A DNA stretch of 64,000 bases from Ischnura elegans (taxonomy: Eukaryota > Arthropoda > Insecta > Odonata > Coenagrionidae), in NCBI RefSeq assembly GCF_921293095.1, contig NC_060251.1, positions 98,690,566-98,754,565 of the forward strand, given 5' to 3'. Each line of letters starts with the position of its first letter. Positions within the stretch are counted from its first letter, which is position 1. The notes beneath the pieces were generated by a model. It had not been told where the DNA came from, ran no database searches, and was given only the letters and a program-made list of their open reading frames with translations. The translations under genes were made by a program, and so were the position numbers. Below are positions 45,701 to 51,700 of this stretch, one piece after another.

Positions 45701-48700
45701 GGTTTTGGTTAAGTTACATGTAGAAAATATTTTTTTACCCCTCTGCTTATAATTTGCTTGCTCATATACATGATAGGCACTGGGTCCTGTGTGTCAAAAG
45801 AGGTACAAATTAAAAGTACAAATTTTTTTACATCTGGTTTTGGTCAATTTTTAACACTGCAAGCCCTTTCATTGTTAAGGAAACCAAGGACGTGGAGGAG
45901 ATTATGGTAACAACTACCCGCAAAAGAAGGCCTATGCTGACCCAGCTGGTGAATGGCCCAATGTGGGAGAATCGCAGGCACCGGCGTATGATCAGCGTTC
46001 CCCACCCCCTCCAATCAATGGGGTGGATAGATGGGGTGGAGACCGTGATGGATACCGAAGGTGGGTCTTTTGTAATATTTGGTGATGTCTTTCCCCCAAC
46101 AGGGTGTCCAGGAGAATTGGGAATTAAGGGTGAATTTTTAGTCCCTTGAATTATGCAAGAATTAATTATTAATAAATTTTTGATCCAACCTGGAATTTTC
46201 CTTATCGCCTAATATTTTTAGCATTCAACAAGTTATTATGACTGGTTATTATGTGAAGCAAGTTGCCCCCTACTGGCTGAATGATTCATTCACTCATCAA
46301 TGCACAGCCTAAAGTACTGGAGATATAGCCATGGATACAGATAAATAGGGGGGCCTGTTTGACTCAAATCAGGCTGAGGGGTGTTAGGTGACAATAGCAG
46401 TTTTCTCGTAAAGCCATATATGTGAAAGAAGTACCCATATGATGAGTTGAGATAGCTTTATTTATGCTCAGAAACTAACCAACGGAAAGTTATTTAATCT
46501 TTTAAAATTTTATTCCCGAACCACCGAGTACAGCTCGTATTGGCCATTTTACATCAGGGTGTTTAACAATTACACATGCATAAACAACCATGCCTTGGAT
46601 AGGGGAAACTACCCAGGCGGGACTCGAACCCGCGACCTCTTGTTTGCCATGCAAGGATTTCACCCCACCCCCTTTTCAACTTTGTGGTTGGATAAAAAAA
46701 TATCAAAATGCTATCTTTTTTAATTTTTATGATTGATGGAATGATGCTTCAAGCTGGCTTACGCAAAAATTTGAAGAAAATAAATGGTGGCCTTTTTTTT
46801 TAGGTATTAATTGTTTAATAATTTCTAATTTTTATTTTTTAAATATGTCCTCATTGTTAACCCTTTCCTGCCGGTGCGTACAATTGGGAAATATTTTCCG
46901 TGTTACAAGTAGCATGAGAATATTTTAAACCCCTCTGTATGGAGCTCCTTTCGGGGTGGAGTTACGCTGGTATTTTCGTCCCTCAGATTTGTGATCCAGC
47001 TCAACGGTGCCCGTCCCTTATTCCAGCGGCCACTGGACTACACCCTCTAACCCAACCATTGCAGGAATCCACGGTCAACTTACTGCATTACCAGTGTTCT
47101 TTCTACCAAACATTGTATTTGATTTTCAATAATTTACTCTTCTAAAAGAATAACCAACAGTTTTTTAAGCATTGTGAAATTTTAAACGGGATTGTAGCCT
47201 TAATAACAACTAAGTTAGTAAATTAAAGGCAAAAAGTTTGCAAGTGCATTAATTTTAATGCTAAAAGTTTGTTTAAAAATTGATTACGCAAGGGAAAAAA
47301 GGAAGAATTCATTTCAAAATATAGAATAATTGTAGTATGCAGCAAAATATATCATTGAAAAAATTATTGACAGTATGCCCACTTCGCAATGGTTTCCTGT
47401 GGTGAGGATGATGGTAAATGAGTGGAGGGTCGGGCTTCGTTGCCGAGGAGTGGTCCCAAGGACTCGCTAAGCAGGGTCTCAGGCCAGGCCTGAATGCATC
47501 AGACAATTGCTACCTCAGCGGTCACTTCCCTTCCCTCGGTTGGCCAGAGCCGACGTAAGGTCATTTACGTTGGAAAATCTGAGATAGCTATACCTGACGT
47601 CAGGTCTTCCTGTATGAAAATGCCCGTCGGCTCCACCAGATGTCCAGTGCAAACGGGTTAATTACCATGTCAAATTACATAAAAATTGTGTCAAAATGTT
47701 GACTTATGCGTTTTTTTTAAACGAATGAGAAATGATTTTTGACGTCGTTCTTACCTTATGATGCTAACTTTTGACGCCCACATGAAAGGCATTGATTTTC
47801 CATGGTTGAAAATTAGTACCAATTTGTCGCGGCTCCAGCGACACTCTCGGTTGCGAGGGAGACCTGGGATCGGGTGATCATGGCGTTTAGTAAAGGAAAG
47901 GCCGGGATAGGAATTTTAAAACACCCGGAGGTGCGTTTATTAGTATCAGAAGGTTACAGGGGGGGTCTGTAAGGACGAGCGAGGTCCGCGGCTGCTGCTT
48001 CCGCGTGGCTGGGTCCGGCTCTGTCCGGAACTGCCTCTCTGGGAATCTCCGTGGATCCGCGACAGCTCTGGCGTTCCGGCGTTGGCGGCGGGTCCAGGCG
48101 CTACGGCGGGGTCATGGGCCTCGTCCTCCGTCTGCTTCCGCGGGTGATGACCTCAGGCGGGCGGCGGTGTCCGGGGAGAGGACCCTCTGGGACAGCGTGC
48201 GCGCTCCTCGCGGAGGGTGCGAGTGCGGCGCCGGTCCACCCGCAGTTTACGGGGCATCCGGCAGAGTGCGGCGCCGGTCCACCCGCAGTTTACGGGGCAT
48301 CCGGCCGATTGAGGGCCTGTGGTAGGAACTATGAGGATATGCTCGCTCTTAGTCCTAGCTTCGGCCTCCTCAACCCCGACTGACTTCCATGGTCCGGGCA
48401 GCGTCTTTTATATCCAACCCTGGCCTCCCTCCGTCCAATGAGGGTGCTCCGCTTGGTCACGAGGTGACGCGTTCGCTGTGCAGGTGTGCGGTCGGGGTGT
48501 GAGGGCAGGTGTGAGACCAGGTGTGCGTTTAGACGCGGGAGTGGGGGAATCGCGTGGTGTGAGGGGAAGGCAGCGGGCTGGAGTGGGGAAGGTGAGGAGA
48601 TGAGGGGAGCGTTCCGGTGGAGTGGGGAGGGTCACGTGGTGACGCGTTCTTCACCGGGGGCGCGTGTTTCAAGTGGGTTTTGCCCATGTTCCAATGCAGC

Positions 48701-51700
48701 ACAACAATCCACCCCTCCCCTGATGGCGCAAAACCCGCGAGAAGAAACACTGTGGGGGCATTGTGGCCGTATAGTGTCGGTCCATAGAATATCCTTGGTT
48801 GGCACTGTGCACTTGGCATCGCTGCCGGGGGAAGGTTTCTTCCTGTGTGGATGTGGTGGGCTCTGTGGGTTGTGGACGTGGAGTGAGCTACTCTTCGCTC
48901 GCTGTCCTCCTTTCTTGCAGGCCCAATTCATGCAGCTCTGTACGTGTTTGCGGACGTCGGAGAGTGCTGCTCGCCAATGATACCCTTGAGTTAGGGCCGT
49001 GTAGGTCGCCTTGATTCCAGGGTGTCCTTCCAATGGCGTATCGTGGTAGCGTTGGAGAAATTCTTTTCGTAAAGCTAGCGGGACCCATAGCCTCCAAGGT
49101 CCTTTTTGGCCGGGCCGGGACCACAGATGATCGATATCGTCCTTGTACTTCTTAAGGAATCGTTTCTGTGTTCTTGTCCTTGAGGGTGTCTGCTGGGCAT
49201 TCAGTAGCTTCTCCCTGATGACTGCGACCTCTGGATCTTCTTGTTGCGCTTGCTGGACTCTTTCGTATAAATCCGCGTGCTGTGTCACGACACGGATAGA
49301 TGGTGGGACCATCCTGTCCATATCCAGAGTCAGAGCGTCTTTTGATGTCCAGGCTGCAGTGACTCGGCCCGTATTGCCGAAGGAGATTGTCCGATGTGAG
49401 TAGTCTATGACGGCGTTAGCGCTTTGAAGCCAGGGGTGTCCCAGGATGAGATCCTCCTCCATGTCCCGTGTGATGTGCAACGTTACTGGTAGATGCAATT
49501 TTTGGACGGTGACTATGGTCTGCAGGTTCCCCGTTGTTAGGAACGTATCTCCCTTTACCGTTCGTAGTGTGGTGTGTTCACCTTTGACTAATTTCTGGAA
49601 GGCCACTGGCAGGCAACGTTCAGCTATTAGGTTCACTCCGGCTCCTGAATCGATGAGGGCGTGGAGTACTTCGCCGCCAAGCTCCACCTGGATTCTGGGG
49701 GTGTTAATAGCTGCTCCATCAGGTTGTGTGGCCCCTATAGACGGGTGGGTGGGCCGGAAGAGATTTTCTGCATTTCCGCCTGGTTTGCTGGGACAGTCTC
49801 GGTGCAGGTGGTATCCTGGACAGTGCTTGCATTTTGGTGGTCTCGAAGGTTGTGTGTAGGTGACATCTTCGGCCTGGTCGGCTTCAATGGCGCTGGCTAG
49901 CCGTATGAGCTCTTCAGTGCTCTGCGGTGGGCAGGCTCGGAACATCTGCTTGATCCTTGGGAGGAGTTGTTCCGTCAGCGTGGGTAAGAAAGTTTCCTTA
50001 TCTCCATCTGGGAACAGCCTCCGAAACAGCTGGATCTTCCGAAGGATAAAAATCTCAGCGCTCTCCTTCGGTGTCTGCATGCTTCCAAATAGTTTTGCCT
50101 GTATCTGGGCCCTCCGTGCTGCTGAGTCAAACCTTCCCTTCAGCCTTTGCTTGAATTCGTACCATGTGAAAGCGAATTCCCGGTACGGTGTCCACCACCT
50201 TCTTGCATCCTCTTGGAGTTGTTGCTCCGCTCTAAAGACCCACCATGATGTGGGTATCTGGTCCTCGTGGAACCTTGTCTCCATGCCTCGCAGGAACGTC
50301 TCCGGATCTTCTGCTTCTCCTCCGGAGAACTCCGGCCACGGGGGACGGTAGGCTGGCTCCGGCACAGCCCGAGGAGTGCTGTTCTGCGGTTGGCGTTGAC
50401 TGCATCTTCCGCATATGAACTGCAGCCCTTCAATGTCCCTCGCTTCGTCCCTCCAGCCAAGGCAGAGGTGATGAAACCATCGTTGGCAGCTGGCACAGGA
50501 AATCAGGTGCTCCCCTACTCTGGTGCATGATGAAGCCTCGCATTGATCCCTTGTGCGGGTGCGAGATGGGTTGGGCGCCACCGAGTTTTGCTGAAGCTCT
50601 CTCGGAAGAGCTATGGTAGGTGTAACGGGCGCTCCATCGATGGGTTGTACATCCATGGTGGAGGCGTTGATTTGCCAGGCGTTGTCAGTCGGGGGATCCT
50701 GTGGGTCCCGGCTGCTATCCATGCTGCCGGTCGATGTCCCCGTAAGTTGGGCGCCAATTGTCGCGGCTCCAGCGACACTCTCGGTTGCGAGGGAGACCTG
50801 GGATCGGGTGATCATGGCGTTTAGTAAAGGAAAGGCCGGGATAGGAATTTTAAAACACCCGGAGGTGCGTTTATTAGTATCAGAAGGTTACAGGGGGGGT
50901 CTGTAAGGACGAGCGAGGTCCGCGGCTGCTGCTTCCGCGTGGCTGGGTCCGGCTCTGTCCGGAACTGCCTCTCTGGGAATCTCCGTGGATCCGCGACAGC
51001 TCTGGCGTTCCGGCGTTGGCGGCGGGTCCAGGCGCTACGGCGGGGTCATGGGCCTCGTCCTCCGTCTGCTTCCGCGGGTGATGACCTCAGGCGGGCGGCG
51101 GTGTCCGGGGAGAGGACCCTCTGGGACAGCGTGCGCGCTCCTCGCGGAGGGTGCGAGTGCGGCGCCGGTCCACCCGCAGTTTACGGGGCATCCGGCAGAG
51201 TGCGGCGCCGGTCCACCCGCAGTTTACGGGGCATCCGGCCGATTGAGGGCCTGTGGTAGGAACTATGAGGATATGCTCGCTCTTAGTCCTAGCTTCGGCC
51301 TCCTCAACCCCGACTGACTTCCATGGTCCGGGCAGCGTCTTTTATATCCAACCCTGGCCTCCCTCCGTCCAATGAGGGTGCTCCGCTTGGTCACGAGGTG
51401 ACGCGTTCGCTGTGCAGGTGTGCGGTCGGGGTGTGAGGGCAGGTGTGAGACCAGGTGTGCGTTTAGACGCGGGAGTGGGGGAATCGCGTGGTGTGAGGGG
51501 AAGGCAGCGGGCTGGAGTGGGGAAGGTGAGGAGATGAGGGGAGCGTTCCGGTGGAGTGGGGAGGGTCACGTGGTGACGCGTTCTTCACCGGGGGCGCGTG
51601 TTTCAAGTGGGTTTTGCCCATGTTCCAATGCAGCACAACAAATTTGCCAAAAAAAGAATTCTGAAATTGATGCATTTGTTTAAATTTTCAGTACATTTCG

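What the first reader, a model, noticed from the sequence alone, without database searches (positions are those of the whole stretch)
47825..51640. Recently moved LTR element that lacks reverse transcriptase but keeps an open Gag-protease frame
Seen: two apparently identical 882-bp LTRs, a matching AATT duplication, a primer site, a purine tract and one 727-codon frame. Gag and protease are intact in sequence, but the frame passes from the protease end directly into the RNase H-integrase linker, so RT and RNase H (normally about 400 or more residues) are cut out in frame. Established: non-autonomous LTR elements depend on a full-length partner. Inference: this is a mobile Gag-protease element using polymerase in trans, and keeping the frame open across the deletion suggests the shortened protein is still useful.
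Basis: partly seen in the sequence, partly recalled or inferred. Interest (0 to 1): 0.78.

Follow-up and report, generated by a model that had tools for sequence, protein, structure and literature searches.

The report
Polymerase-less retrotransposon family keeping its capsid
This is a young copy of a mobile DNA family that has lost its copying and inserting enzymes but still has an open capsid-plus-protease gene, and it most likely borrows the missing enzymes from a rarer complete relative in the same genome; partners of this kind are known from wheat and mouse.

Summary
47825-51640 is a complete LTR element on the minus strand: identical 882-bp LTRs, AATT duplications, a primer site, a purine tract and one open 727-codon frame. 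It is one of at least 41 near copies. 40 of 40 scored copies share the RT/RNase H deletion; 9 of 9 LTR pairs tested differ by 0-1 substitution, each with its own 4-bp duplication. That stretch holds two tandem GGGAAA(T/C) slippery-type heptamers in 6 of 6 RT-bearing relatives and 0 of 29 RT-less copies, so Gag and protease are joined in one frame. The RT-bearing family (6 copies) has a different LTR but the same primer site, purine tract and LTR tips. One RT-less copy carries the RT-bearing family's LTR, which suggests template switching. Capsid and protease show reduced amino-acid change among RT-less copies. Best reading: a "semi-autonomous" Gag-protease lineage mobilised in trans. Close precedents are wheat RLG_Sabrina_SA/RLG_WHAM and RLG_Quinta, and mouse IAP 1-delta-1. 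New variant of a known kind.

The parts
50759..51640 (-). 5' LTR, 882 bp; TATAAAAGA at 51338-51346 and AATAAA at 50870-50875 (read by eye)
   Evidence: identical to 47825-48706
47825..48706 (-). 3' LTR, 882 bp
   Evidence: 40 scored hits of at least 95% among 204 candidates
47821..47824 (.). target-site duplication AATT (left)
51641..51644 (.). target-site duplication AATT (right)
50746..50756 (-). primer-binding-site-like TGGCGCCCAAC, 2 nt inside the LTR
   Evidence: same letters in the RT-bearing relative L061. Assignment to a tRNA was not tested
48632..50815 (-). open frame, 727 codons: Gag (PHD, capsid, zinc knuckle) - protease - integrase zinc finger - tail ending in the LTR
50435..50527 (-). 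PHD finger in N-terminal Gag
   Evidence: Pfam PF00628, E 2.7e-5; also in L061
49886..50302 (-). capsid-like region
   Evidence: Pfam Ty3_capsid E 6.1e-4, Retrotrans_gag E 2.6e-4, both below curated cut-off
49793..49831 (-). Cys/His zinc knuckle CKHCPGYHLHRDC
   Evidence: 27 of 29 copies keep all its Cys and His in the part counted
49769..49773 (-). place where 29 nt with two tandem slippery-type heptamers, present in RT-bearing copies, are missing (approximate)
49412..49705 (-). aspartyl protease with DSG at 49643-49651
   Evidence: Pfam PF13975 E 8.9e-8, PF00077 E 5.4e-6; DSG in 28 of 29 copies
49344..49346 (-). RT/RNase H deletion junction (about 1447 nt of the relative absent)
48917..49084 (-). 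integrase H2C2 zinc-binding domain
   Evidence: Pfam PF17921 E 9.7e-14
48862..48869 (-). junction of the further deletion that separates this subtype from the longer one (8-nt overlap); integrase core and C-terminus absent from here to the 3' tail
48709..48721 (-). polypurine tract; 48707-48746 identical, 40 of 40, to L061

Best explanation
A recent insertion of a long-lived, RT-less LTR family of Ty3/gypsy-like gene order, of the kind called semi-autonomous. Shown: the element encodes Gag and protease fused in one frame plus a leftover integrase zinc finger; it lacks RT, RNase H and the integrase core; the RT-less form has inserted many times after losing them. Inferred: its RNA is packaged with, and copied and inserted by, the enzymes of the rarer RT-bearing family, whose primer site, purine tract and LTR tips it shares. 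Its own Gag-protease has been kept by selection, either by acting on its own RNA (cis preference) or by supplying capsid to a mixed particle. Because the overlap segment with the slippery-type heptamers is gone, protease would be made on every Gag chain rather than on a frameshifted minority.
For: At least 41 near copies; shared RT breakpoint in 40 of 40 scored; 9 of 9 RT-less LTR pairs tested with 0 (5) or 1 (4) substitutions and 9 different 4-bp duplications. RT-bearing relative: 9 of 9 candidates scored, 6 at 99-100%, with RT, RNase H and integrase core by Pfam in the one tested, L061. Shared 11-nt primer site and 40-nt purine-tract region. One RT-less copy (L067) has the RT-bearing family's LTR, 100/100 support in two LTR segments. 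Constraint: fitted omega 0.41 for capsid and 0.37 for protease, 2dlnL against omega=1 about 16-22; shared capsid changes 14 N to 21 S, p=1e-4; no stop in the four pieces of 28-29 copies against 8.5 expected. An older RT-less relic without the heptamer segment (L077, 86-87% identical) shows that both losses are old; changes on the modern branch are 13 N to 13 S, on the relic branch 28 N plus 2 stops to 11 S.
Against: No transcript, particle or mobilisation data. No RT-bearing copy seen has this family's usual LTR. The modern-versus-relic contrast is only p=0.07, and its capsid part alone is 3 N to 0 S. Shared and single-copy changes do not differ (p=0.19), and in protease the single-copy changes are the more constrained (15 N to 20 S against 16 N to 11 S shared). 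Shared protease changes alone are not significant (p=0.20). Gag N-terminus (omega 0.64) is not distinguishable from neutral; the integrase finger (0.53) only weakly (2dlnL about 5). One of 29 copies has lost the protease DSG. Copies were found by similarity, which favours intact ones. No RNA structure beyond chance follows the heptamers (z -0.25).
Confidence: 0.74

Rival explanations
1. Pure parasite: the element is mobilised entirely by proteins from the RT-bearing family, and the open Gag-protease frame persists only because all copies are young and descend from a few recent masters.
For: LTR pairs are nearly identical, so a single copy has had little time to decay; Gag N-terminus and integrase finger are near neutral; shared and single-copy changes do not differ significantly.
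Against: Capsid and protease omega below 1 across the tree of copies; zero stops where 8.5 are expected; the lineage is old enough to have a 13% diverged relic.
Confidence: 0.17
2. The RT-less copies derive from repeated deletions of the RT-bearing family or from DNA-level duplication, not from retrotransposition of an RT-less RNA.
For: Deletions at short matches are common in LTR elements (general knowledge); a shorter subtype did arise by a further deletion with an 8-nt overlap; two RT-less copies 61 kb apart on C4 could be a duplication.
Against: One breakpoint in 40 of 40 scored copies; 9 of 9 tested pairs with own duplications and near-identical LTRs.
Confidence: 0.03
3. The helper is a different, more distant family, or one now missing from this assembly, not the L061 family.
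For: The usual LTR of the RT-less copies differs from that of the RT-bearing copies; many places with about 22-31% identical Gag exist.
Against: Same primer site, purine tract and LTR tips as L061 and a chimaeric copy with an L061-type LTR.
Confidence: 0.15
4. The RT-less Gag-protease mainly interferes with the RT-bearing family (premature protease, poisoned particles), as a restriction-like by-product.
For: Protease is fused to Gag, and the RT-less copies outnumber RT-bearing ones, at least 41 to 6.
Against: No direct evidence; the RT-less copies themselves need working particles.
Confidence: 0.06

Closest known systems
Wheat RLG_Sabrina_SA and RLG_WHAM (semi-autonomous Gag-Pro elements, likely partner RLG_Wilma; PMC9744471, passages read)
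   Same: Encode only Gag and protease, lack RT and integrase, high copy, thought to be cross-mobilised by a partner.
   Different: Plant elements; the passages read mention no lost frameshift segment; here an integrase zinc finger and a PHD finger in Gag are also present.
Wheat RLG_Quinta with RLG_Cereba (PMC11302176, passages read)
   Same: RT and INT lost, Gag kept; the partner was named from shared features such as the purine tract; recombination between lineages proposed.
   Different: Gag plus an unknown domain, no protease mentioned in the passages; centromere targeted; plant.
Mouse IAP 1-delta-1 (PMC7411935, passages read)
   Same: A deletion in gag-pol makes a fusion protein said to help the element in cis, while Gag and Pol come in trans; [quoted passage not shown]
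   Different: Mammalian endogenous retrovirus with a different deletion; an analogy, not a relative shown here.
TR-GAG elements (PMC8704663, passages read)
   Same: LTR element with a single Gag frame, transposes without its own enzymes, related to a potentially autonomous element.
   Different: Copia-type in that paper, no protease described in the passages, plant.

Membership tests
LTR retrotransposon | two LTRs with target-site duplication, primer site and purine tract | tested here: met
Ty3/gypsy-order element | order Gag-PR-RT-RH-IN | tested here: inconclusive
   Order met in the RT-bearing relative L061; the window element lacks RT, RH and the IN core; no clade tree was built
Non-autonomous LTR element mobilised in trans | lacks RT and integrase core yet has inserted repeatedly after the loss | tested here: met
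Non-autonomous LTR element mobilised in trans | uses a named partner's enzymes | not testable with these tools
   only indirect: shared cis ends and a chimaeric LTR copy
Semi-autonomous Gag-Pro element (RLG_Sabrina_SA / RLG_WHAM type) | open Gag-protease frame, RT and INT absent across the family | tested here: met
   integrase zinc finger retained, so INT is partial rather than wholly absent. Works like them; descent from them not tested
TR-GAG | single frame with the Gag domain only | tested here: not met
   protease and integrase zinc finger also present
IAP 1-delta-1 | member of the mouse IAP family | not tested
   no IAP sequence was compared; used as an analogy only

The most novel reading that the evidence does not exclude
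In an animal genome, a lineage has given up polymerase and the gag/pol frameshift-type segment together and become a dedicated maker of Gag-protease, kept by selection and exchanging LTRs with its enzyme-supplying partner: a stable division of labour between two transposon families, in which protease dosage is set by the mix of the two RNAs rather than by frameshifting.
Probability: 0.27. Interest if true: 0.65.

Novelty: new variant of a known kind. Interest (0 to 1): 0.46.

Why it matters
It offers a countable natural case, in one genome, of a partial element with at least 41 copies, a 6-copy likely helper, an older relic and a chimaera. That makes it possible to test whether transposons without polymerase keep capsid genes for their own benefit or to share, and what happens when frameshift control of protease is lost.

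Tried and rejected
Tried: a search for an RT-bearing element with the window's LTR. The LTR search scored only 40 of 204 candidates and I did not examine the solo hits, so it is incomplete. All 9 of 9 RT candidates are the L061 family (6) or weaker relatives (3); LTRs of five of the six RT-bearing copies were fetched and none is of the window's type. The 74% RT relative on C3 (L068) matched only an RT stretch, with no match to either LTR; dropped as helper.

The idea that the 1627-codon frame of L061 is the natural layout was rejected: in five of six RT-bearing copies the frame with the zinc knuckle stops, and L061 has a small length change that joins the frames and loses the knuckle. Structure after the heptamers: not beyond chance.

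A suspected duplicate pair of RT-bearing copies (C27 and C8) has unrelated flanks on the side tested, so they count apart. Two RT-less copies 61 kb apart on C4 could not be separated: the fetched stretches are 95% alike and may be LTR.

Dropped rows: one copy from the Gag N-terminal tests because of a length change (28 of 29 used); selection tests used 29 of at least 41 copies, those whose letters I held, some only in part (C1:117.23 with 81 of 420 nt of the integrase piece, C23 with 244 of 300 nt of Gag N-terminus). L067 was not in the selection tests. LTR trees: 30 LTRs offered, 29 entered the first segment and 13 the second, because the rest gave no long enough match. One search crashed after printing its counts, and its table lists two 'stop' changes that no copy carries. 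The omega=1 fits used a fixed kappa of 2; the grid is preferred, and fitted omega values were read from the logs.

Organism: not named by any tool. The L8-like frame in the window matches fly chains (6xu6, 4v6w) better than the rabbit-type ones, with one chain (11he) better still. Organism names of those entries are recalled. Weak; I say only 'animal'.

A gag-only plus purifying-selection search returned no paper. For PHD-finger Gag, one search listed five papers and two; the one opened (PMC3286476, passages) uses the word only for a host gene near an insertion; the others were seen as listings.
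Full report
WHAT IS THERE. The element at 47825-51640 reads on the minus strand. Its two LTRs are identical over 882 bp and are flanked by AATT on both sides; primer-site-like and purine-tract sequences sit next to the LTRs as expected. One frame of 727 codons encodes a PHD finger, a capsid-like region, a Cys/His knuckle, an aspartyl protease and the zinc-binding domain of an integrase (the two capsid hits are below Pfam's curated cut-off).

COPY NUMBER AND MOBILITY. 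The LTR has 40 scored matches of at least 95% among 204 candidates. The capsid stretch has 41 matches of at least 93% amino-acid identity, 40 of 41 without a stop inside it (150 of 442 candidates scored); the protease stretch has no stop in any of the 41 closest matches. A 240-nt probe across the RT-deletion junction matched end to end in 40 of 40 scored places of 55 candidates; 17 have the window's length and 23 are 6 nt longer. In 9 of 9 RT-less copies whose two LTRs I compared, the pair differs by no substitution (5) or one (4, two of them with a one-base gap as well), and each copy has its own 4-bp duplication. So the RT-less form itself moves, recently and often. No mutation rate is known here, so I give no age in years.

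THE RT-BEARING RELATIVE. L061 (C10) has LTRs of 1.2 kb with one mismatch and RT, RNase H, integrase zinc finger and integrase core. Its RT region has 6 copies of 99-100% in the genome; all 9 candidates were scored, the others being 74% and twice 67%. Against L061 the window element is 86% identical in Gag-protease, 82% in the integrase finger and 91% in the 3' tail, with about 1447 nt (RT and RNase H) and about 820-940 nt (integrase core and C-terminus, by subtype) missing. At least two RT-less subtypes exist: a longer one that keeps a little more integrase, and the window's, which lacks a further 168 nt (against L040) with an 8-nt overlap at the ends.

THE LOST OVERLAP SEGMENT. In five of six RT-bearing copies the frame that holds the zinc knuckle stops soon after it; in the three of these five in which the protease DSG was found in the fetched stretch, it lies in the frame one step back, overlapping gag. 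The overlap holds two tandem heptamers, GGGAAAT and GGGAAAC, in the gag phase that minus-one slippage needs (checked in one copy, L062). That GGGAAAC is a known slippery site is recalled, not looked up. The heptamers occur in 6 of 6 RT-bearing copies and, in the 60 nt after the knuckle, in 0 of 29 RT-less copies. The two RT-less copies aligned lack 29 nt here, and all 29 have the same short form of this stretch, which joins Gag and protease in one frame. L061 itself differs: a small length change puts gag and pol in one frame and takes the knuckle out of frame. By frame lengths, three of six RT-bearing copies have both frames open. No structure beyond chance was found after the heptamers (z -0.25), so frameshifting is an inference from layout.

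SIGNS OF A SHARED MACHINERY. The 11-nt primer site, a 40-nt stretch at the purine tract, the first 14 and the last 8 LTR bases are identical between the window element and L061, while much of the LTR is not alignable. Synonymous divergence between window element and L061 is low in the first 300 nt of gag (0.15) and higher in capsid (0.51), protease (0.36) and integrase finger (0.73); Gag N-terminus against capsid p=5e-4, against protease p=0.03. This fits an RNA-level signal or exchange near the 5' end; I cannot separate the two. L067 (C9) has an RT-less interior, 94% like the window's and 86% like L061's, but LTRs of the RT-bearing type. In two LTR segments it groups with RT-bearing LTRs at 100/100 support (29 and 13 of 30 LTRs entered). 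Two RNAs sharing a particle is the simplest cause; descent from a common ancestor with that LTR is not excluded but fits less well, since most of the interior is no closer to L061 than other copies are (the last stretch is as close to L061 as to the RT-less copies).

IS THE FRAME KEPT BY SELECTION? Between window element and L061, dN/dS is 0.12 in capsid, 0.13 in the integrase finger, 0.30 in the Gag N-terminus and 0.40 in protease; this includes time before RT was lost. Among RT-less copies no stop occurs in the four coding pieces of 28-29 copies, where about 8.5 would be expected from 194 two-state sites. On trees of each piece the fitted omega is 0.41 for capsid and 0.37 for protease (2dlnL against 1 about 16-22), 0.64 for the Gag N-terminus (not distinguishable from 1) and 0.53 for the integrase finger (2dlnL about 5). 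Shared changes in capsid are 14 non-synonymous to 21 synonymous (p=1e-4 against neutral); pooled over pieces 45 to 44 (p=3e-5); single-copy changes 62 to 41 (p=0.01). Against my reading: shared and single-copy changes do not differ significantly (p=0.19), and in protease the shared changes alone are not significant (16 to 11, p=0.20) while the single-copy ones are the more constrained (15 to 20). Recombination between copies and the favouring of intact copies by similarity search weaken all of these.

AGE OF THE RT-LESS LINEAGE. L077 (C1) is an older fragment, 86-87% identical to RT-less copies and 78-81% to L061, with two stops. It has the same RT junction and lacks the heptamer segment. Both losses therefore most simply predate its split from the modern copies. 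At sites where two modern copies agree, changes assigned to the modern branch are 13 non-synonymous to 13 synonymous with no stop (p=0.026 against neutral); on the relic branch 28 plus 2 stops to 11 (as neutral). The two branches differ only at p=0.07, and the short capsid part alone gives 3 to 0 on both.

HOW IT MOST LIKELY WORKS. Shown: an RT-less element without integrase core, with fused Gag-protease, has retrotransposed repeatedly. Inferred: its RNA enters particles with RT and integrase from the L061 family; its own Gag-protease is under constraint, so it probably acts on its own RNA or is shared. What protease on every Gag chain does to assembly is unknown.

WHAT IS KNOWN ALREADY. From passages read: wheat RLG_Sabrina_SA and RLG_WHAM encode only Gag and protease, and RLG_Sabrina_SA is called semi-autonomous (PMC9744471); RLG_Quinta kept Gag and is held to be cross-mobilised by RLG_Cereba (PMC11302176); mouse IAP 1-delta-1 has a deletion that makes a Gag-Pol fusion, said to help in cis while needing Gag and Pol in trans (PMC7411935); a TR-GAG element was seen to transpose in Arabidopsis (PMC8704663). 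So the kind is known. In the listings of the searches made I did not see an RT-less family that has also lost a gag/pol overlap segment; these searches do not establish that it is new in print.

SURROUNDINGS. The insertion lies antisense to and upstream of exons of a DEAD-box helicase gene on the plus strand (DEAD hits in frames 53046-53402, 54237-54419 and 62135-62356). That the gene is DDX3-like, and that an upstream exon would put the element inside an intron, is my reading of the translations, not a tool result.

Noticed in passing
window 53046-62356: Split exons of a DEAD-box helicase on the plus strand; the translation at 51962-52381 looks DDX3/belle-like by recall (no Pfam hit there). 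The element lies upstream of it, antisense.
   Followed up: partly
window 31598-32185, minus strand: A 196-codon frame with a ribosomal protein L2/L8 C-terminal domain (Pfam E 9e-41); best among solved chains is 11he_L8, then chains 6xu6 and 4v6w.
   Followed up: partly
window 57094-60268 and 62661-63878: The same predicted peptides occur in both stretches, one resembling a pogo/Tigger-type transposase by recall: perhaps two copies of a DNA transposon among the helicase exons.
   Followed up: no
L061 1052-7894: The RT-bearing copy with a single 1627-codon frame has lost the zinc-knuckle frame; its LTR contains internal repeats spaced by about 114 nt.
   Followed up: partly
L068 3283-4522: A 73-74% RT relative on C3 with no match to the LTR of either family.
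   Followed up: partly
window 48226-48305: About 40-nt tandem duplication inside the LTR (seen by eye); LTR lengths vary from 818 to 888 bp among the nine RT-less copies.
   Followed up: no
window 50401-50542: A PHD finger at the N-terminus of Gag, present in the window element and in L061; two literature searches listed no paper that I could see to describe this.
   Followed up: partly
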